This document shows positions 13,332 through 44,670 of a stretch of DNA of 64,000 nucleotides, piece after piece. Position 1 is the first letter of the stretch, and the number at the start of each line of letters is the position of its first letter. The stretch spans positions 2,062,028 through 2,126,027 of the forward strand of contig OZ020519.1 of assembly GCA_963971425.1 (NCBI GenBank). The letters run 5' to 3'. The position numbers and the translations under genes were made by a program. The notes beneath the pieces were generated by a model. The model did no database searches. It saw nothing but the letters and a program-made list of their open reading frames with translations, and was not told where the DNA came from. The DNA is from Bryoerythrophyllum caledonicum (Eukaryota; Streptophyta; Bryopsida; Pottiales; Pottiaceae).

Positions 13332-16300
13332 ATGCGAGCCGTGGTAGCCTGGACAGAGCATGTGGTATGTATCCACACTTTTCGTATGGAGCCCTAAGTA
13401 ATCCTAAATGGGTCACTCTTTGTTGTAAGAAATTCTGACTCAAGCACGATTATGGCAGCCGGAGCATGATGGAGTTAGGAGTGTGTGCTTTGACATTGCA
13501 TTCCGGCCAGGTACTTACACCAACGGAATGCGTCTGATGTTTAAAGCATCTGATGGTTTGACATTCAGTCTGTCCAGCCCTTAACAACCTGGACAGACTG
13601 GATGGTAAACCATCAGATGCTTCACCAACAGATGGAACCCTAAACACCCTGGACAGGTATTTACACCAACAACAACATGTGATTGTGTTGCCCAATCTGA
13701 TTCCATGGATTTTTTGTTGTAGATGGGAGTCACTTAATTGCAGCAGTTGGAAGCAGAGTTCTCATGTACGATGCAGGTGATGGGGACCTCCTTCACTCCC
13801 TCAAAGGTAAAATAGCGGCTTCCAAGGTGACATAACCCTGCGTTTCACATGGTCTTAGGGTTTCATCTGGTTGAAAGGCTTTTAGGGTTATTGCATCTGA
13901 TGGTCTTAGGATTTCATCTGTTTCAAAAGGTCTGCATCGGAGAGCATCACATGATTTTAGGGTTTCAGGGTTAAGCATCTGATGGTTTGAGGCCTTTCTC
14001 TCGTTTTTAAAGGTTTTTAGGGTTGTTCATGCAGGGCACAAGGGCGAGGTATACTGTGTGGCGTACTCAAGGGATGGGAAGCGGTTTGCCTCGGGAGGAG
14101 CTGACAGAACCATCATCATTTGGACGCACAAGGTTGATACATGTGTAGAGTTTTTGTGCTTGTGTCTGTTGCATTGTCTGCATTTTTTTTTTCTGTTAAG
14201 AGTGATGATGGTGGCATGGTGAAGGCAGAAGGCATCCTCAAGTACAGCCATGGGGACTCCATCCAGTGCTTGGCCTACAACCCCGTCACTCAGCAGGTGA
14301 GCCTCAAATTTGAATGTCTCCCGTACTTTGTTGAGCCATTTGTAAAGTCACCCAAAGTTTCAATAAAAATTTCCCTTTTTTAATTTTAATACATGTGTTA
14401 TTAGATCAAAATGGAAGACCGTGAAGGGAGAAAGAGAGGTCATGTTTGAGTTCTTTCAAAAGTCATCCAAAGTTTCCATAAGACACTCTCTTTTTTATTA
14501 TTATACTACTCGTTTCTCAGCTATTAGATCAATGAAAGAGCTTGATGGCCTCTCAACTAGAATCCTGATTAAGCATGGAAGAGTTTGGTGTTTTTGAACT
14601 CAAGTTAGAACTAGTTTTTGCTTCTTTTGAGAAGGAAGAAGGAGAGGTCATGTTGTACCATGAGTCTTAGCCACCTTTTTCCTCTTTGAGCTGATTTTGG
14701 TTATCAAAAACAAGAAAATAGTTCCAATTTCTTGGTATCGTTGCCTCACTTTGTAAATCATCTTGGACAATTGTTAGCGGGGTAGAATTATCGTCCTCTT
14801 TCAAGGGTAGGCACTCTAAAACCATAGTTTATCATGTCTAGTTAACTTTGCTTCTTGATGATGTGCAGCTTGCAAGTGGGACTGCATCCGACTTCGGAAT
14901 CTGGTCTCCGGAGCAGAAGTCTGTTTCCAAGCACAAGGCTCCTTCTAAGGTAGGCAACTCATCAGTCAATCCACTACAAAGTTATACACTTCTAACGGTA
15001 TTACACGCCTCCTGAATCAGTAAAATGCAGTCAACAATTACTGACTGCAATTCAAGGTGGTAAAATGAACCGTATTTGATTTCAGCTGTGTTTTTCGAGG
15101 AAAAACTTTCTTATAATGTTTCCTGCGATGTGGATTGATTTCATGGTTTTTGGACGGTCAATGGCTATGCAGGTGTTGTGTGCTGCATGGACTGCAGACG
15201 GGCAGCATCTTGCTCTGGGGATGTACAATGGCCACATTTCCATCTGCGACAAGAGCGGTGTCAAGCAGGTACTTGCATTCTCTCACCTTCTCGCACATTA
15301 TGACCATAACTTACATCATGATTATGCACTCCCAGGCGGTGGTAGAGAGGCCAGGACCAGTGTGGACCTTGCAATGGAACACGCTGCAGAACAAAACCTC
15401 AGACACGCTTGCTGTCGGGTGCTGGGACAGCACCCTCTCCTTCTATGATTTATCAGGCAAGCAGGTTTGCCCTCACTTCCTCCACAAAACAAAAAAAAAA
15501 AATTAAAATTAAATTCCATAACAATAGTCATCAAGTCACCCATATAGTAGACTGCTTTCTATAGTCACCTAAGGTTTCAGTATGATACCCCCTCTTTTTG
15601 TTTCAATACTACTCTTTTGATAGCAAAGAGCTTGGTGATGTCTAAGTCCTAAGTTTTAGCTCCCTTTGGGAAGGGAGAAGGAGAGGTCATGTTGTATCAT
15701 GAATTTCAGCCATCCATGAACCTCGGCCATCGTTGTCTTCTCTGAGATGATTATAGAAATTTAGAGCTATTTAGGGCTGATTTTAATAATTCAAATGAGA
15801 AACGAGTTCAACACTCATGGTATCCTTGCCTCACTTTACGAGTAACTCTAATTATTAAAAAAAAAAGCATTCCTATCATCACTTTTTTGGAGACTTTTTA
15901 ATTTGTAGTGTTGGTGGTTGATTCTTGGCAGATTGGGAAATGCAAGCCCTTGGATTTTGATCCCTGCAGTGTGACATACCATGATAGCAAGTACCTCTGT
16001 GTCGGTGGCTCTGAAAAGAAGGTGCATGGATAAAAAAAACAATATAACTAGTTTATAAGATAGGTTGATTGGCATTTCACATAATTAATTTGTATACGGT
16101 ATATTTCATATTTTTCTATAAGATAGATATTAATTTGATCTAACATGGTTTCTCAGGCATCATGTATGTAGGTGTTTCTGTACTCAAATGATGGTGTGAA
16201 GTTGACCACCATGTTTGAAACTGGAGATTGGATTTGGGCCATTAGGTCGCGGCCCAAGCATGATTATGTGGTAGTGGGATGCAATGATGGCTCCATTACC

Positions 16301-26689: not shown

Positions 26690-27590
26690 CACTGCTGCCA
26701 ACTTTGACACCTTTCACAGAGCTAAAAAATTGTTATTTTACCTTGAAGTTTTGGAGACAACATCAAATCTATGTTGAAAACATGAATATCAAATTTCAAA
26801 CCCAGAGGACTTATGAAACAAAAGATATTGAAGATTAACCACCGTGGGGTAGCTGTGAGAAAAGTTTCACAACTACCAACTTTGACACCCTCCCAAGGAT
26901 TGAGGAAAAAAAAAATTCCCATGGAATTTTTGGAGTAAAAACGTCATTATATTTATTATATGTGTGGAAATTTTCAAGTCCAAAAAATTTACTAAAAAAA
27001 TCACATCCCAAATCTACCAACATGTGTAGTTGTGAGAAACAAAGGGGAAAATCATTTTACTACTTCCAACTTTGACACCCTCCCTAGAGCTGAGAATTTG
27101 TTATTTCAACATGAAAATTTTGGCACATGGTTATCTTTATGTTGATAACATGTGGAAAAATTTATAGGCCAGAAAATTTATTCAAAAGAAGATATTCAAA
27201 ATCTACTAACATGGGGGTTAGCTGTGAGAAAAGTTTCACAACTGCCCACTTTGACACCCTCCCAAGAATTCAAAAAAATGATTTGTCCATTAAATTTTGG
27301 GTATGAAGTCATCTTCACGTCAAATACAAGTGTGGAAAATTTCAAATCCGATAGATCTACACAAAAAAACATATACCAAGTCTACCAACATGTATTGTAG
27401 TGAGAAACAAAGGGGAAAGCTTACCAATACTTCCAACTTCAACACCCTTCCTAGGATTGAGTTTTTGTTGATACATAATGAAATTTTGGCCACAAGATCA
27501 TCTCTATGTTGGAAACATGTGAGATAGATTTCAAAGCCAAAAGATGTATATACAAAAAAAAATTATTCCATATCTACCAACGTGTATGTC
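26690..27590. repeat. About 183-bp satellite with dimeric higher-order pattern
   Basis: A ccaactttgacaccctcc-like anchor recurs at 26698, 26877, 27066, 27245 and 27432. Spacings are 179, 189, 179 and 187 bases. Alternate monomers differ in the same way: one type has gctgtgagaaaagtttcac before the anchor, the other tgtgagaaacaaagggg. The true repeat unit is therefore a dimer of about 367 bp. Monomer length is close to a nucleosome repeat. Five monomers are present, ending against the Tc1/mariner remnant. Confidence 0.85.
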
Positions 27591-31218: not shown

Positions 31219-31679
31219 TACAACTGATACTTATTTTACCTTGTATTCGATGAGAACAATGAGCGCAAATACCGAGTCATGGCGGACATAACACGAGTCC
31301 GCCACCCGAAAACCGTTACAGCACCTCAAATCCACCATCATCTACCCAGGACGTACACCCCGTCCATCCGGAAATCCACAAAATTCGTAGACTCCTTCCT
31401 CTCACAACAAAGTAAGTGTCGCTATCAAAATGCAAGCCTCCACATCGCGCCTTCACTAACGAACAGTAGCGGCACTTGCACACTTCAAAGCACACTTCAC
31501 AGCACATTCTCGTCGATGGCTGTCCACGATCCACCGTGAAATTGGGTCGTTAGTTCCTCCGAGAATGCAATCCGTCGACAAGTCGAAGCAGTGTGCGAGT
31601 GTAGAATTTGTTGTTTGCTGAGGAGGAGTGGAAGTGGAGCGAATTTGAGAGAGTTAGGGTTTGGGGGAGGATTGTGGCG
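31219..31679 (+). promoter_or_regulatory. NFU promoter and leader with telo-box
   Basis: This is the spacer between the TTAA element and the NFU start. A TTAGGGTTT at 31654-31662 lies 18 bases before the ATG, so it is probably in the transcribed leader. No TATA box is certain. Confidence 0.4.
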
Positions 31680-32516
31680 ATGGCGACTTGGATGCGCGCA
31701 GTGCAGGTGCTCGGGAGGCGCGCGGCAGTGCGGCCGCTGGTGCAGGAAGGCGAGCGCGTGGCCGCGCGGCGTCTTATCAGCAGCAAGAGCACGGCGCGCA
31801 AGGCCGGTGTGGTGCACCAGGGCTGGTCGTTCTGGAGTGCCCGCGGTGGCCTGGCAATGGCGGACGAACGAGTGATGGCGCTGCAGCAGCAGCAGCGGCG
31901 CGGGATGTTCATTCAGGTGGAGTCGACGCCGAACCCGCAGTCGCTCATGTTCTATCCGGGGAAGCCCGTGATGGAGGTCGGGAGCTCGGATTTCCCGAAT
32001 GCACGCGCGGCGATGGCGTCGCCGCTCGCCAAGGCGCTGTTCGTCGTGGACGGCGTGGTGCGCGTCTTCTTCGGCTCGGATTTCGTGACCGTGACCAAGT
32101 CCGAGGAGGTCTCCTGGGACGTGCTCAAGCCGGAGATCTTCGCGGCGATCATGGACTTCTACTCCATGAAGCAGCCGCTATTCTACGACGCGCAGTCGCA
32201 GGCGTCGGACACTGCGATTCATGAGGACGACGATGAGACGGTGGCGATGATCAAGGAGCTGCTGGAGACGAGGATCCGGCCTGCGGTGCAGGACGACGGG
32301 GGGGACATCGAGTACCGCGGGTTTAACACCGAGACGGGGATCGTGTCGCTCAAGATGCAGGGCGCGTGCAGCGGCTGCCCGAGCTCCGCTGTCACTCTCA
32401 AGTCTGGGATTGAGAACATGTTGATGCACTATGTCTCGGAAGTGAAGGGCGTGGAGGAGGTGCACGACGGAGACACGGACGACGAAGGGGAGGTACAGAA
32501 GAGTGAGACTGGTTGA
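31680..32516 (+). CDS. Mitochondrial NFU-type Fe-S cluster scaffold/carrier
   Basis: NifU-like protein that carries Fe-S clusters to mitochondrial client enzymes. A single exon encodes 278 aa. I start at the ATG at 31680 (context GCGATGG); the frame stays open further upstream but without a usable ATG. Residues 1 to about 70 are Arg/Ala-rich and look like a mitochondrial presequence. Residues about 76-165 are the Nfu N-terminal domain ([21 protein letters not shown]). Residues about 185-262 are the NifU C-terminal domain with the cluster-binding C230-x-x-C233 in GACSGCPSS. The acidic tail is unusual in length. It is closest in layout to plant NFU4/NFU5. The absence of introns is notable beside heavily split neighbours and could reflect a retrocopy. 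Confidence 0.93.
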
Positions 32517-33687: not shown

Positions 33688-36600
33688 TTACACGAAGCTG
33701 AGGCTGTCAATAAGCTCTGCAGGAAAGAGTCCACTTGCTGATAAGAACCACTTTGACGTCTCATCCAGCTCAAACTTGGGCACTTCTTCCTCATGTTCAA
33801 CAACAGCTTTGATATTTGATTCTTCCTGTTGATTCACAGACTGGGAGCTGGAAGGAATGGTTTTCTGGTCACTTGATGAACAAATCACCTCTTTTGTCTT
33901 GGCCCTCTTTTGTGAGCGCTTCTGTGACACTCCTCCCACGTTTACAACCTTCTCATTCCGATGAGCATAAAGTACACCTGCAGAAAAGCAACCATTACAG
34001 TGAAGAGAGTTGATCTTTTAGTAAAAAGCACTTCTGGCATGTGCCATTATAAAGAGGCCAAGAACCATTACCTGCATCTTCCAATATGTTCTCGTCCTGG
34101 CTTTGAGAGAGATTCTCAATCTCATCAGCACTTTCTACTTCCGAGGTTTCACTGTCCTCAATTTCATCTTCAAGCTCGCCTTCAGCTTGTTTGGTGCTAA
34201 AAGCCTGCTTGTCCATAAGTTCCAGTTGAGTGCTTTTGCTAGAAGGATTGCCTGTCACCCTCTCGTTGTGCTTTTCAATGATGTCGCTGGTGAAAACTGT
34301 GTCTGAGAGGTCCCGGAACAAGTTGCTGATTCCGAAAAGCTCACCCTTGTGGATTTTGGAGTCCTGCAATAATAGGGGTCAAATGCAGTTTCTTATCAAT
34401 GTCTAAGGCGGTTTTCGACGACAAGTGGAATGAGAAATTTAATAAAGTAATCAAGATGTGGTCCTAATGATACAAAGAGCTTTCAGATGTGGAACATAAG
34501 ACTTACAAGGGATACTAATAAAGAGGAAACTTATATGATAACTCACCAAGACACCTTTAAAGTAACGCTTCTCAAGGGTGCCATTAGTAAGGTGCTAACA
34601 CTAAGGTCCCATACCGGTTTCAAGGGAATATTGATAAATTTAAACTCTACATGATGACTTCTTAGGTGTTTAAAACTCACCGTGAAGTTGTAAGGTTTAG
34701 GACTCAGGGAATACTAACAAAAACGATGACTTATAAACTGACCTGGACGCCTTCAAAGTAGCGCTTCTCAAAGGTGCCATTGACGCCGATGTTGAATAAC
34801 TGCTGCTTGTAGATCTGGCGAGAATAGACGAGCTCCTCAATGGAGCCCGCCGCGAGCAACCTGTAGACCGTGACATGGCGGCGCTGGCCGTAGCGGAAGG
34901 ACCGGTCTTGCGCCTGCAAGTCCTGCGCAGGGTTCCAGTTGGGGTCGAAAATGACCACTCGATTTGCACTCACCAGGTTCAGGCCCAACCCTCCCGCCCG
35001 GGTGGAAATCAAAAACACCTGAATGAAAAGAAAAAAAACATCAGAAAACGAATCAGTAAATACATCTAAGAATGTACCCTAAACCCTAGAGCCTAAACCG
35101 TAAACCTCACGGATAAGAATCACTGATAACAAGAATAGAGTCCCCCAAAGTTTTCATAAAATACCCCTGTTTTGACTAATAGCATAACAAGAAATACCAC
35201 ATGCCCCACAGTGAACCCTTTGGCTTTATGGTATTTGAGGCTCTCTTTGACGGCAGCTTTTCTAAAGAATAACAACATTTTGGTTGTTGAAAAGGGAATC
35301 TTGACTTAAAATTACTTGATTGGCAAATGAGATGGAAATCGACCTGCTTACTGGGGCTGTTGTTGAATTCGTCCACAAGGGTCTGGCGCATGCCCATGGG
35401 AGTGGATCCGTCCAGACGACAAAAGCTGTACGCTTTGCGAACCAAAAACTTATCCAGAATATCTAGCATCCTGCAAAATGGCAAGCCTATCATTTACACC
35501 AGTCACCAAATAATATGGGCACAAAATCGCTCATCCAAAGACATGAGAATAGTCAGGCATTCACTTGACAGAGTAATTAAACAGAGGAATCTCCGAGAGC
35601 CAGAAACCTAAATCTTGAAAGCATAACCCCTAAAAGCACCTAACAAGACAGGAGCAAGAGAAGACAGGTTTCGATCACTCACTTGACAGAGTAGCTGAAG
35701 AGGAGCACTTTGTCGCCCTTGGAGAGCCAGGTCCCCAGAAGTTTATCCAAGGCTCTCATCTTGCCGCAGTGCTGGGCGTCACTCAGTCCCATGAAGCTCT
35801 CATCCTGCTGCAGTCCGCCCACCAGGGCCGCATCCTCGCCTAGCGCGGCTGCAGCGAATCGCTCATCCTTTTTCTGCTTCTCGGGGTCGTCCTTTGGACT
35901 GGGCTTAATCAGCTCCAGATGATTACTCACCTGCATGTATAATGCCAGAGCTTGATTTCAACTCGATACTTTCGCAAAATGAGGGTTTGAGGTTTAGGAT
36001 GGAATCACTGACCTGCTGTAGCTTGGTCAAGCATGGGAGGACGATGCAGAAGGGGCACCACTCGCAGCCACCCTCGGCGTTCTCCTGGTGCAGATACCGC
36101 CAAATGACGCCCTCGGGCGCGGTGCGGTGGCAGCACTCCACGCGGGTGAGGTGGCTGCCGCAGCTGCAGGGCGCGTCCTTGCGAATGAGCAGCTGGAAGT
36201 CCGGGCTGCACAAGAGGCGCCGGTACACGCGCCGCTGCACGTCGCTCATCTGGCAGAACACCACGTTGTCCGCTTTGCCGCGCATCAGATGCCCGATGGT
36301 CTCCTGCTTCGTCCGCCGCAGGAGGTGGCGGCTCAGGACCTTCACCTATGGAACGAAGGAGAATCAGGTGAATGTATTAAAAAGACATTTCCACAGGGGT
36401 GATTCCAGTAGAAATGGAGCCCCTCCAAGGTTTCCCTGAAAGAGGCTTTTAACATAGAAGTAGGAAGGGCAGGGACCTCCACCACTTCGCCGTTTTGACA
36501 TGACAAGCGAGCGTGGGATTTGTGCGACACTTATGTACACTTAAGGAGGGTCGGTGTCGACCCTTCTTGAGAGTTTTTAAGTGAATCGCTTCTCCAATGC

Positions 36601-38778
36601 TCGCTTGTCATGTCAAAGCGGTGAAGCAGTGGAGGTCCCCGCACTTCCTACTTCTATGTTAAAAAGCCTCATTCAGAGAAACCTTGGAGGGGCTCCATTT
36701 CCACTGGAATCACCTCTGTGGAAATGTCATAATGAAACTCACAATGGACGATTCTCGTACCAGGTGTTTTTTCCGCTCCTCTGCGATCCTTACGAAGCGC
36801 TCGGGGGCGCTGATCCGCTGGCCCTGCTTGAGAGGCTCCCCGTAGTAGTCCCGGAAGTGCTCGCGGGGCCCGAGGCTGCCCGGAGCCGCCCAGTCGAAGA
36901 CGTTGAACATCTCCGTGTACTTGTTCTGCATGATGGTCCCGGTGAGGCCGAAGCGGCGGAGCGTCTTCATCTGCGTGCAGGCCTGGTAGAGCTGGGATTT
37001 CTCGTTCTTGAGCCGGTGGCATTCGTCCACTATCACGCAGTCCCAGTTTACGTTACAGAGAGCGGGTAAGTTCAAGCGGAACATGTCGTGGCTTGTCAGG
37101 AGTACCTGCACTATGTCAGAAACATCGGAGATTAAACCCTACACCCTAAAGCCCAAATCCTAATTTCTAAACCCTGAACCCATGAAGATCCACAAACAGA
37201 GGTTGACAGGAATTTATGCACAAAACTCCAGAGGACGGTTCACAACAACTTCAGCAGAGGATGTGGATCCTAAATCCTAAACCCCAAACTTTAATCCCTA
37301 ACCCCTAATCCATGAATATATAGAAACAGAGGTTGACAGGAATCTATGCACAACGTAATTCACAACATGAGAGAAAGGTATGGTTCATAACATCAGAGGA
37401 TGCAGAGGTTAAACCCTAAACCCTGAAGACATACAGACAGAGCTTGACAGAAATCTATGCGCAAAACCTCAGACGATAGTTCACAACGTCATCATGCACA
37501 AATGAAGGGCTCCATGACGACAAACATAAAGAAACTGATGCACAGACCTCGAAGGACGGTTCACAACTTCACCAGAGAATGCAGACCCTAAACCCTAAGC
37601 CCTGAAAACATTATCATACAAAGCTCGATGCGCTGACCTCGAGCTCCTTGGCCTGGACCTTGTCTAAGACGGCGTCCCGGTTTGCGCCATGGTAAATGCC
37701 AACCCGAAAAGAGCCCCACGCCTGAAACTCCTGCTCCCAATTGTGCAGCACGGAAGTGGGGCACAGAATGAGAAACACCTTCTGAGAATCCGGCAACCGC
37801 CGCATGGAGCCGATGGCGCCCACCTCGCCGTCCTTCTGCAGCAGCGCCGCAATCAGCGCTATGGTCTGAATCGTCTTGCCCAGGCCCCTGTCGTCAAACG
37901 GAAACAAACATGAGAGGGAAACCTAATCAGGGTTTCCAGAACAAGAAACATGAAAGCGAAACCTGGACGAATAACCCTATCTGAGCTTGTTTTCCAGACT
38001 GTGCCACTTACATGTCGTCTCCGAGGATGCCGCCCCGGCCCTCTCGGTAGAGATTGTAGAGAAACTTGACGCCATCTCGCTGGTGCGGCAGCAACCGGGC
38101 GTTGATGGGCGCCGGCACCTGCACGACGCGACCATCTTCCTCCCACAGCACCAAGGGCTCATACGGCCCCTCCTTCTCCGACTGGATGAACAGCCCCGCC
38201 TCACTATCCTGCACATCCTCAATGGCCGGCTCCACATCCAAGCTCACATCACTCTCCGCCTTCCTCTTGCGCTTACGCATACGATCAACATCCTCATTCT
38301 TAACTTCAACAAGTGGGACATCGACTTCTTCTGCTTCTGCAACCCTCACTTTAGCTCCACTCTCCACCTTCCTCCTGCGCTTCCTCACACGGCCATCCTC
38401 ATCCACAACATCTCCCTCAACATGTGCAACATCTTCTTCAACTCGTGCTACATCTTTCTCAACGTGTGCAGCATCGCCTTCTTCTGGATCTGCATCCCTA
38501 ACCCTACCTCCACTGCCTTGATAACGCGACCTTGGCGACACTGATTGGATGTCAATGGATGGCAGGTGCGGTTTCAGAAACGAGCCCCCGTATGCGCCAA
38601 ACTGTTCCCTGAGGCTTGTTTTAGGAGGCCTTCGAGGTGCTACAGCTTCAGGAGCAGGTTTGAATTCGCCTTCGGAAGCACGTTTGGGTTCAAAATCAGA
38701 TGGTGATGGTGATGCGCGTCTGGTGCGTCTGTGAGCGCTGCACGCCTGGAGTGACTCCTTGAAGGCCTTCAAGGACAT
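33688..38778 (-). CDS. CHR9: SNF2-family helicase, CHR9/SWITCH2 (ERCC6L2-like)
   Basis: Nuclear SWI2/SNF2 DNA-dependent ATPase of the Rad26/ERCC6L2-like group. Exons (minus): 38778-38012, 37887-37638, 37105-36743, 36345-36013, 35930-35683, 35470-35344, 35018-34743, 34363-34072, 33977-33688. They total 981 aa in frame. The start MSLKAFKESLQ resembles the Arabidopsis protein; a longer reading to 38799 lacks an ATG. The N-terminal 230 residues are basic and low-complexity with KRKRK-type signals. Motif I is DDMGLGKT (about 254-261). Motif II is DECH (366-369), where relatives have DEAH. Next is a Cys cluster (520, 522, 531, 532, 554, 557, 560), then helicase-C motifs FCRLDGSTP, STRAGGLGLNLVSANRV and QAQDRSFRYGQRR. 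The tail is acidic. Intron 3 is almost entirely a hairpin. Confidence 0.95.
36385..36727. repeat. Long hairpin filling helicase intron 3
   Basis: Arms 36385-36513 and 36599-36727 are about 129 bases each and about 90 percent complementary by eye. They are separated by an 85-base loop. The host intron is 36346-36742, so the hairpin leaves only 39 and 15 bases beside the splice sites. Both arms read ARLSCQ.GE.VEVPALPTSMLK on their own strands, a consequence of the inversion. It could be a foldback transposon or a double-stranded RNA/small-RNA precursor. Confidence 0.85.
37130..37620. repeat. Telomere-motif and minisatellite repeats in helicase intron 2
   Basis: Units of about 110-130 bases containing gaggttgacaggaatctatgc and aaaccctaaaccctga words repeat about four times with decay (gttgacagg near 37,202, 37,332 and 37,442). 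Confidence 0.7.
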
Positions 38779-42743: not shown

Positions 42744-44670
42744 ATGGCGGAGGTACTCCATTTCCTTGTTTCCTTTGCTAATTTCTTGTGTTGATTGTAG
42801 GACCCTTTTCCTTACCTTGTGTCATTGTACCTCGTTCTCCACTGATATCCGTTGTGAGAGCATCACTTCGGCTTGTCAGATGTGTTTTTCACTTTTGGGG
42901 AAGTTATGAGATATGACTAGGTTACAAGATAAGTGCTCGTTAGATGACAGGTTGCTTGAAACGAAGCTCACATACAAGTAAGATGTGGAGGAGAATTATG
43001 AGCTGTAATGATCGCTCTCCTTGTAATGCTCAGTTATAAGATGAGTTTTCTTTAGGTGACGAACGTCGCAGCTCAGAATGAGAAGGGCGATTATGAGCCG
43101 TAATGATCACCCTCCTGAAATCATCGCTTCTGTCTTTGTGCCTGTCAACGTAGGCTTTGAGAGAGTGGGTATCAGCACTTTGTGATATGGGCAGACACAG
43201 TTTTGGTGCCTGGAAAACCGCGCACTTGGTCGGCTGAATAAGACTGGGTCAAAAAAGTAACTCTAAATACTCTTGATTCTTTTGCAACTTGGACTCTGAA
43301 GCAAGGTGAAAAAGAATGTGAATTTATTTTTCTTGTGCAGGTGGTGCCTGTGGTGGAGTTGAGCGTGGTGATGCATTGTGAAGGATGTGCTGGAGCTGTG
43401 AGAAAAACTCTTCGACGGATTCCAGGTACCACCATCTCCCAAAACAAAAGTCTTCTTTAAAGTTAAGAGCGTACTTTTCCATCTTATATTTGCGAACTCC
43501 ATCAAGAGTGTGCAACCGCAGCTGTGAGGAAACTCTCAGAAGAATCCTGTAGAACCTCACGATTAGTTGAGGGAAAAAAAAAGTCCAGACATACCTTAAA
43601 GTCGGTACACTAAAATTGAGAATTAGTGTAACCACACTAATTAATTTGTAAATGCTATAAATTCTTACTTTAGATGAAGGTTTTTACTATGGGCACAACT
43701 ATTGATACTATTCGACGAGGGGAATCATTGTAAACATCATTGGTAAAAACATTCATCACAAGTGAAAACTTATTAACATTTTAGATCATTTACTGTGCTT
43801 AACACTAATTCTCAATTTTAGTGTACTGAGTTTCAGGTACTTAAACCGCAGCATCTACGCAAAGGCTACATATGTCCCCACATTAACAGATTCCTTGTTC
43901 CTGGTAGATACCGCTGGTTTCTGGTTACTTTCCTCGGTGTAAAGCAAAACTCACCTTTAAAGTCACTCATACTTTGAAGTAGATGACCTTTGTGTGCAAA
44001 CGTCCAGCAGAAGACAACAGTTCTAGTCCCCAGTTAGATTCTGGTTCTCTCCATCAGACCACGAAGCCACCTTTTAAGACATGACCTACTTTAAAGAATC
44101 TCACCTTCTCTTAAAATAACTAACCTTTTGATGCTCCCAGGCGTCCAGTCCTACACAGTGGACTACACACAGCAGAAGGTACTCGTCGTCGGCACCGCAG
44201 ACCCCGAGGTAATCCTGAGTGCCGTCCGCAAGTCCGGCAAGATGGCGTCCCTGGTCGTCAAGGGCGAGGCCCCGGCGCCACCTCCAGCGGCGGCCGTGCC
44301 GAAGGCCGCTCCAGGCCAGGAAGAAATCAAGAAGGTCGCCAAAGGCCAGGAAGAGATCAAGAAGGCAGACTCCTCCGAATCTAAGGAAGAGAAGAAGGAC
44401 GAGAAAGCGCGATTCTCGTTCCGCAGCAAGATGCCGAAGCTGCCTCACCGGCCGAAGATGGCGGACCTGCGGCAGCGCATGTCCGGACTGAAGATGGCGG
44501 ACCTGCAGAAGAAGATGCCGGACCTGGGCAGCACCGTGCCCAAAAACTTCATGACCAACGCGTGCCGCGAGTTCCTCACCAAGGGCGTGTTCTATGCGGC
44601 GACGGACGAGCTCTCTGACTCTGAGGACTCCGTCTCCTTGAAGAAGGGCGGGGAGCCCCTCAAAGCGTGA
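42744..44670 (+). CDS. HMA-domain metal-binding protein
   Basis: Small heavy-metal-associated (copper-chaperone-like) protein. Exons are 42744-42752, 43341-43425 and 44141-44670, total 207 aa in frame. The HMA domain spans about residues 5-70 (VVELSVVMHCEGCAGAVRKTL). The metal-binding motif is C16-x-x-C19 (MHCEGC), in the beta-alpha-beta order expected. After residue 75 there is an Ala/Pro linker, duplicated GQEEIKK units, a Lys/Glu stretch, and two repeats of a K-MADL-(R/Q)-(Q/K)-(R/K)-M motif with PDLGSTVPKNF. The C-terminus lacks the CaaX box of plant HIPP proteins, so it is HPP-like. The first exon is only nine bases (Met-Ala-Glu); it is supported by the in-frame donor, but a different upstream start is possible. 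Confidence 0.85.
43493..43550 (+). pseudogene. Relic duplicate of HMA exon 2 inside intron 2
   Basis: Shortly after exon 2 the intron contains gcagctgtgaggaaactctc followed by agaagaatcc. This parallels exon 2's gagctgtgagaaaaactctt and cgacggattcc, and is preceded by gtgtgca like the exon's gatgtgct. It lacks a clean reading frame. It is best explained as a decayed exon duplication. Confidence 0.5.
43605..43826. mobile_element. 222-bp MITE with perfect 25-bp inverted repeats in HMA intron 2
   Basis: Bases 43605-43629 and 43802-43826 are perfect reverse complements, with words gtacactaaaattgag and ctcaattttagtgtac. Weaker complementarity continues outward for about 12 bases (accttaaagtcg / tgagtttcaggt). 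There is no coding capacity. The target duplication is unclear. Confidence 0.75.

What the first reader, a model, noticed from the sequence alone, without database searches (positions are those of the whole stretch)
36385..36727. Near-perfect 129-bp-arm hairpin occupying almost a whole helicase intron
Two 129-base arms about 90 percent complementary, with an 85-base loop, leave only 39 and 15 bases of intron on either side. The spliced-out intron would be a long double-stranded RNA, a natural Dicer substrate, inside a chromatin-remodeller gene. It may be a foldback transposon that settled in the intron, or a hairpin-siRNA locus able to act on other copies of the arm sequence.
Basis: partly seen in the sequence, partly recalled or inferred. 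Interest (0 to 1): 0.75.

Follow-up and report, generated by a model that had tools for sequence, protein, structure and literature searches.

The report
Plant intron hairpins that self-repair
The hairpin is one copy of a scattered family of short hairpin-shaped mobile elements found mainly inside introns, probably of a plant; the two halves of each copy keep matching each other while copies drift apart, and in one gene such an element may itself have become a new intron.

Summary
The hairpin is real and longer than described: a near-complete palindrome (36384-36728, 4-nt centre) filling most of a 415-nt intron (36346-36760) of a SNF2 helicase gene. It belongs to a dispersed family in this 437-Mb, probably plant, genome. 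I examined 36 loci: 29 hairpins, 7 single arms. At least 21 of 29 hairpins lie in introns of unrelated genes. The shared end TAGGGGTGTTCACAG looks like a hAT-type miniature transposon (MITE).

Arms of one copy are more alike (85.5%) than arms of different copies (68.5%); they are sisters in 26 of 29 elements, share indels, and in 9 of 29 the palindrome runs on into locus-specific DNA. RNA-level selection leaves no trace (G-U v A-C mismatches 102:102). I infer DNA copying between arms.

At L024 (receptor kinase) the hairpin intron is absent from 27 of 27 paralog matches with at least 60% identity and bracketed by a 7/8 direct repeat, though the element's 3' end fits loosely: possible intron gain. 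At L028 and L038 paralogs have the intron without the element. Small RNAs could not be tested.

The parts
33688..38778 (-). Host gene: SNF2-family helicase, modelled with nine coding exons, 975 aa
   Evidence: Gene model; Pfam SNF2-rel_dom (4e-60), Helicase_C (6e-25)
36346..36760 (-). Intron 3 that holds the hairpin (415 nt, GTACGA...CCATAG)
   Evidence: Pfam SNF2 domain runs across the junction (residues 232-506, junction after 454)
36384..36728 (.). Near-complete palindrome (hairpin)
36384..36393 (.). Left palindrome extension past the consensus element end, GACATTTCCA (10 of 10 matched on the other side)
36394..36718 (.). Element proper; outer end CAGGGGTG (left) and CAGAGGTG (right, read inward); family consensus TAGGGGTG
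36719..36728 (.). Right palindrome extension, TGGAAATGTC
36514..36598 (.).
36737..36742 (-). Alternative 5' splice site GTGAGT (would add VRESSI in frame)
36761..37105 (-). Exon 3
36013..36345 (-). Exon 4

Best explanation
The hairpin is an old, noncoding, palindromic DNA element (MITE-like, with hAT-like ends) of a family that, among the copies read, lies mainly in introns. Shown: the family, the intron location of most hairpins, a centre asymmetry shared by copies (one hairpin ancestor), arm-to-arm matching that exceeds copy-to-copy matching, shared indels, and palindromes that run into locus-specific DNA. Inferred: the arms are kept alike by DNA copying from one arm to the other (template switching at the replication fork, or gene conversion in a folded strand), which also copies flanking intron DNA to the other side and can erase target duplications. 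Most insertions are probably neutral passengers removed with the intron; at L024, and perhaps L023 and L034, the insertion may itself have made the intron. In the helicase gene the hairpin is most likely such a passenger; whether its intron is older than the hairpin is open.
For: Family. Introns: joined exons carry a Pfam domain across the junction in 14 of 29 hairpin loci (window, L012, L014, L017, L024, L028, L029, L034, L037-L042), the FtsZ/tubulin domain is split in register by L027, and 6 more have an open joined frame only (L011, L016, L023, L030, L043, L044): 21 of 29. Arms: mean 0.855 within v 0.685 between elements, 22 elements; 262 sites where both arms share the same non-consensus base v permuted mean 54.6, maximum 72 in 500; arms sister in 26 of 29, permuted maximum 5 in 2000; 30 indels shared by both arms v permuted mean 3.5, maximum 8 in 1000, 58 unshared, among them a 17-nt deletion in both arms of L034. 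In place: L026 and L018 are paralogous over ~8 kb; five consensus-to-derived changes are in both L026 arms, and the arms disagree at three sites. Growth: 9 of 29 palindromes extend 10-58 nt beyond the element; a 60-nt query from L042's extension matches only its own two arms in the genome. No RNA selection seen: 102 v 102. Centre: 10 of the 15 elements classifiable on both sides are A/B.
Against: Seven of 36 loci are single arms, so the half element also exists alone. A target-duplication-like repeat is seen at one locus only and imperfectly (7 of 8), so hAT membership is unproven. By plain identity 7 of 44 arms (of L023, L030, L036, L037) lie nearer to another element's arm. Sister arms alone would also follow from separate inverted duplications. 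In several loci with an extension (L010, L017, L033, L039, L042) the element end was extrapolated. Ten of 17 new loci were not fetched, the seven fetched were picked because both arms matched, and 53 of 93 candidates were not scored, so the intron share may be biased. No small-RNA, transcript or population data.
Confidence: 0.72

Rival explanations
1. Each hairpin arose separately in its intron by inverted duplication of a dispersed half element, which makes arms sisters and includes flanking DNA from the start.
For: Single-arm copies exist (7 of 36 loci); palindromes include locus-specific DNA; sister arms.
Against: An asymmetric centre (A half and B half) is present in 10 of 15 classifiable elements, which separate duplications would not give; L018/L019/L022 are best read as having lost an arm, since their paralog L026 has both.
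Confidence: 0.15
2. The hairpins are functional RNA genes (hairpin-siRNA or microRNA precursors) whose pairing is kept by selection after transcription with the host gene.
For: Long stable stem, matched changes in both arms, location in transcribed introns.
Against: No excess of G-U over A-C mismatches in gene sense (102:102); both orientations; no Rfam match at gathering threshold in the window; arms co-vary along their length, including indels and non-family extensions.
Confidence: 0.08
3. The family only inserts into introns that already exist; the gene-specific introns at L024, L023 and L034 were gained otherwise and received the hairpin later.
For: At L028 five of five intron-bearing PLD paralogs have the intron at the same codon without the element; the close eIF4A paralog of L038 has the intron without the element; paralogs of L041 and L012 show a gap at the same place by coordinates, not read. 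At L024 the last 37 nt of the intron match the element's end only loosely: a local alignment leaves 16 nt unexplained. L034 has 27+47 nt of non-element intron.
Against: At L024 27 of 27 paralog matches with at least 60% identity run through without an intron, one read at DNA level; the non-element remainder (8-9 nt plus 0-37 nt) is shorter than any intron read here; the bracket is GGTACGTG/GGTACTTG. L023's intron leaves about 4 nt by extrapolation, with 29 of 29 covering paralog matches intron-free there.
Confidence: 0.4

Closest known systems
hAT-type MITEs of plants
   Same: About 320 bp, noncoding, dispersed, inverted-repeat ends of the form TAGGGGTG (the hAT end motif is recalled, not from a call).
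   Different: Whole element is a palindrome; arms of one copy agree better than copies do; no clear target duplication at the loci I looked at except L024; at least 21 of 29 hairpins in introns, whereas a survey (PMC12550479, passages) finds MITEs of Rosaceae, Brassicaceae and Poaceae first in promoters and downstream regions, then intergenic regions and introns.
Introners (introner elements; PMC9860276, passages seen)
   Same: Similar elements filling much of the introns of unrelated genes; terminal inverted repeats; at L024 a gene-specific intron with a target-duplication-like repeat that carries the donor.
   Different: Several host introns are older than the element (L028, L038). The survey passages report no introners in land plants.
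Template-switch maintenance of RNA hairpins (PMC8794818, abstract, outline and passages)
   Same: Stem changes copied to the opposite arm while the loop sequence is kept.
   Different: There helices of RNA genes; here stems of up to about 200 bp in noncoding elements, with growth into flanking DNA.
Long hairpin-siRNA loci of plants (recalled)
   Same: Long inverted repeat in a transcribed region.
   Different: No small-RNA evidence and no strand-specific pairing bias here.

Membership tests
MITE of the hAT superfamily | Terminal inverted repeats of hAT type (YARNG, recalled) | tested here: met
   Consensus end TAGGGGTG in both arms; clean at both ends in L034 and L040
MITE of the hAT superfamily | 8-bp target site duplication | tested here: inconclusive
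   7 of 8 at L024; not seen by eye at L034, L040, L012, L015, L030, L036 or the window copy
MITE of the hAT superfamily | Autonomous partner encoding a hAT transposase with the same ends | not tested
   No search made
Introner | Many similar introns in unrelated genes | tested here: met
   At least 21 of 29 hairpins in introns of different genes
Introner | Intron absent from homologs without the element (intron gain) | tested here: inconclusive
   For: L024 (27 of 27 matches with at least 60% identity; DNA), L023 (29 of 29 matches that cover the site, of 35 paralog rows), L034 (23 of 23 covering, of 26 rows, 27-46% identity). Against: L028, L038, and by coordinates L041, L012. Mixed: L017. Uninformative: window gene
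Introner | Splice sites supplied by element ends or target duplication | tested here: inconclusive
   Fits at L024, with a loose 3' end; in the other 22 introns the non-element remainder sums to 4-337 nt
Hairpin-siRNA or microRNA locus | Phased or precise 21-24-nt small RNAs | not testable with these tools
   No small-RNA reads
Hairpin-siRNA or microRNA locus | Selection for pairing in the transcribed strand | tested here: not met
   G-U type 102, A-C type 102 mismatches over 27 elements

The most novel reading that the evidence does not exclude
A hAT-like palindromic element that makes introns in a plant: it inserts with an 8-bp duplication whose upstream copy serves as the 5' splice site (5 of 23 introns have an extrapolated 7-8 nt between donor and element), with the acceptor AG formed by the element's last A and the duplication's G. 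Afterwards the palindrome repairs itself by arm-to-arm DNA copying, which keeps a long hairpin in the intron for long times and overwrites flanking intron and target duplications. (Lowered from 0.35 on review because the 3' end of L024 fits loosely.)
Probability: 0.3. Interest if true: 0.85.

Novelty: new variant of a known kind. Interest (0 to 1): 0.62.

Why it matters
Long palindromes are expected to decay; here 29 hairpins, at least 21 of them in introns, keep their arms matched, nine have grown into flanking DNA, and a paralog pair (L026/L018) shows matched change in place. That gives a replicated test of template switching or conversion as a source of compensatory change, a pattern usually read as proof of RNA function. 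If the L024 type of insertion is confirmed in related species, it is also a case of intron gain by a MITE-like element in a plant, a group for which a broad survey found no introners.

Tried and rejected
Other copies in the window: none found. Copies in viral and prokaryote collections: one exact arm pattern, 0 in viral contigs; another 19-base pattern, one match in a bacterial genome, about what chance gives by my estimate. Known RNA family: none at gathering threshold. tRNA: none. A coding origin of the arms was not searched. PDB search with the helicase stretch: no match. Paralog test for the window gene: only three distant matches (29-31%), which run through the site, uninformative. L017: one paralog with a gap at the site, not read; eight matches run through; left open. 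At L028, besides the five intron-bearing paralogs, 13 further matches run through the site, so that intron is shared by a subgroup only. Literature: searches listed nothing that I recognised as a plant intron-confined MITE family with matching arms; this covers only the open library held. Early gene models with wrong exon ends were corrected. Intron enrichment: no measured intron fraction; 21 of 29 would have probability 4e-4 even if 40% of the genome were intron.
Full report
What is there. The window gene on the minus strand is a SNF2-family helicase, modelled with nine coding exons (38778-33688, 975 aa; Pfam SNF2-rel_dom and Helicase_C). Its third intron, 36346-36760, contains a palindrome at 36384-36728. 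The outer 129-base arms are 91% alike, and the inner part also pairs, so the whole 345 bp is one hairpin with a 4-nt centre. Its folding energy is 23.5 standard deviations below shuffles.

It is a family. The assembly holding the window has 437.4 Mb. The arm finds 42 matches at 29 places; a consensus query finds 64 matches, with 40 of 93 candidates scored, and 17 further places. 29 are hairpins and 7 single arms. The shared end is TAGGGGTGTTCACAG, which resembles hAT ends (recalled). The host genes (AMP-binding 4-coumarate ligase-like, ureide permease, PMT-like methyltransferase, FtsZ-like, many receptor kinases; some names are my reading) suggest a plant; the species is not known.

It sits in introns. 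I joined flanking exons at GT/AG-type sites chosen by eye in 20 loci (19 hairpins and L031) and in 7 more. A Pfam domain crosses the junction in 14 of the 29 hairpin loci (L042 only just above the cut-off), an FtsZ/tubulin domain is split in register by L027 (profile 1-82 and 82-127), and 6 more have an open joined frame without domain support (L011, L016, L023, L030, L043, L044), giving 21 of 29. L015 and L021 have a domain that breaks off at the element. L010, L013, L025, L026, L033 and L036 are likely by my reading of splice sites or flanking frames but not proven. Of the single arms L031 is in an intron (TrmE_N domain across the junction), and L018/L019/L022 share the position of L026 in paralogous regions; L020, L032 and L035 are unresolved. 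I have no measured intron fraction for this genome.

The arms of one copy stay alike. Mean identity of the two arms is 0.855 within and 0.685 between elements, and 37 of 44 arms have their own partner as nearest arm (22 elements). With 29 elements, both arms share the same non-consensus base at 262 sites, against 54.6 on average (maximum 72) when partners are shuffled; one-arm differences number 210. In a tree the arms are sisters in 26 of 29 elements. Thirty indels are shared by both arms, against 3.5 on average (maximum 8) when partners are shuffled; 58 are unshared, and 19 of 29 elements have a shared one. The centre keeps an asymmetry common to copies (A/B in 10, B/B in 4, A/A in 1 of 15 classifiable on both sides), so a hairpin ancestor is more likely than separate duplications.

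It happens in place. L026 and L018 lie in paralogous regions of about 8 kb. L018 retains one arm. L026 has both; at five sites where L018 has the consensus base both L026 arms carry the same other base, and the two L026 arms disagree at three sites. In nine of 29 hairpins the palindrome continues 10-58 nt past the (in part extrapolated) element end, 83-100% matched, into DNA that shares no more than 10-nt matches with that of other copies; a 60-nt query from L042 finds only its own two arms in the genome. The window copy has 10 such bases on each side. Mismatches between arms show no preference for G-U over A-C in gene sense (102:102, 27 elements), so selection on a sense-strand RNA stem is not detected. 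Copying between arms at the DNA level, as described for RNA hairpins by template switching (PMC8794818, abstract and passages), explains substitutions, indels and growth together. The copying itself was not observed.

Did it make introns? Eight loci were tested through paralogs, besides the window gene. L028 (phospholipase D): five of five intron-bearing paralogs (43-53% identity) have the intron at the same codon, without the element; 13 further matches run through. L038 (eIF4A-like): the close paralog has the intron without the element, while more distant matches run through. L041 and L012: a paralog shows a gap at the site by coordinates (about 70 and 270 nt; not read). L017: mixed. L034 (glycosyl hydrolase 17): 23 of 23 matches covering the site run through. 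L023 (glyoxal oxidase): 29 of 29 run through, one read. L024 (receptor kinase): 27 of 27 matches with at least 60% identity run through (two of them with stop codons; only 150 of 870 candidates were scored), and one read paralog aligns without a gap. At L024 a global alignment lays the consensus element over the 339-nt intron from nt 9 to its end, between GGTACGTG and GGTACTTG. That is what insertion of an element with an 8-bp duplication into an exon would leave, with the donor in the first copy. Two cautions: the GGT part of the repeat is partly forced by splicing, and the last 37 nt match the element's end only loosely (a local alignment leaves 16 nt unexplained). In favour, what is left without the element is too short for an intron of the sizes read here. 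In the other 22 introns the non-element remainder sums to between 4 nt (L023) and 337 nt (L010), most of them as expected for insertion into existing introns. For the window gene (90 nt remaining) only distant paralogs exist (29-31%), so the age of its intron is unknown.

Comparison. Plant MITEs are common, but in Rosaceae, Brassicaceae and Poaceae they lie first in promoters and downstream regions, then in intergenic regions and introns (PMC12550479, passages). Introners were reported absent from land plants (PMC9860276, passages). I file this as a new variant of MITE with possible introner-like cases, not as a proven hAT family or a proven introner family, because target duplications and intron gain were each shown only in part.

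Verdict. The unexpected part is the maintenance and growth of the palindromes within introns, and the L024 intron.

Noticed in passing
window 37106-37637: Intron 2 of the helicase gene holds several degenerate telomere-like stretches (TTTAGGG-type) among repeated short phrases; a similar stretch lies in intron 6 (about 35080-35110).
   Followed up: no
window 43592-43839: Another imperfect palindrome (259 columns, 73% self-complementary) with ends TACCTTAAAGTCGGTACACTAA / TTAGTGTACTGAGTTTCAGGTA; not this family by BLAST.
   Followed up: partly
window 13544-13622: Short palindrome with 34-nt arms, 91% complementary.
   Followed up: no
window 26846-27521: About 1.8 tandem copies of a 367-bp unit, 77% matches.
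   Followed up: no
L018, L019, L022 (contig C1) and L026 (contig C8): Three copies of a gene region on C1 (96-99.7% alike) and one paralog on C8; the C1 copies keep one arm of the hairpin, and the intron seems to use a GC-type splice donor (my reading).
   Followed up: partly
L013:5585-6732, L017:6341-7224, L032:6391-7068: Other inverted repeats with arms of about 250-430 bp near family loci, so hairpins are not rare in this genome.
   Followed up: no
window 31605-32516: Long open frame resembling a NifU-like scaffold protein (my reading of the translation).
   Followed up: no
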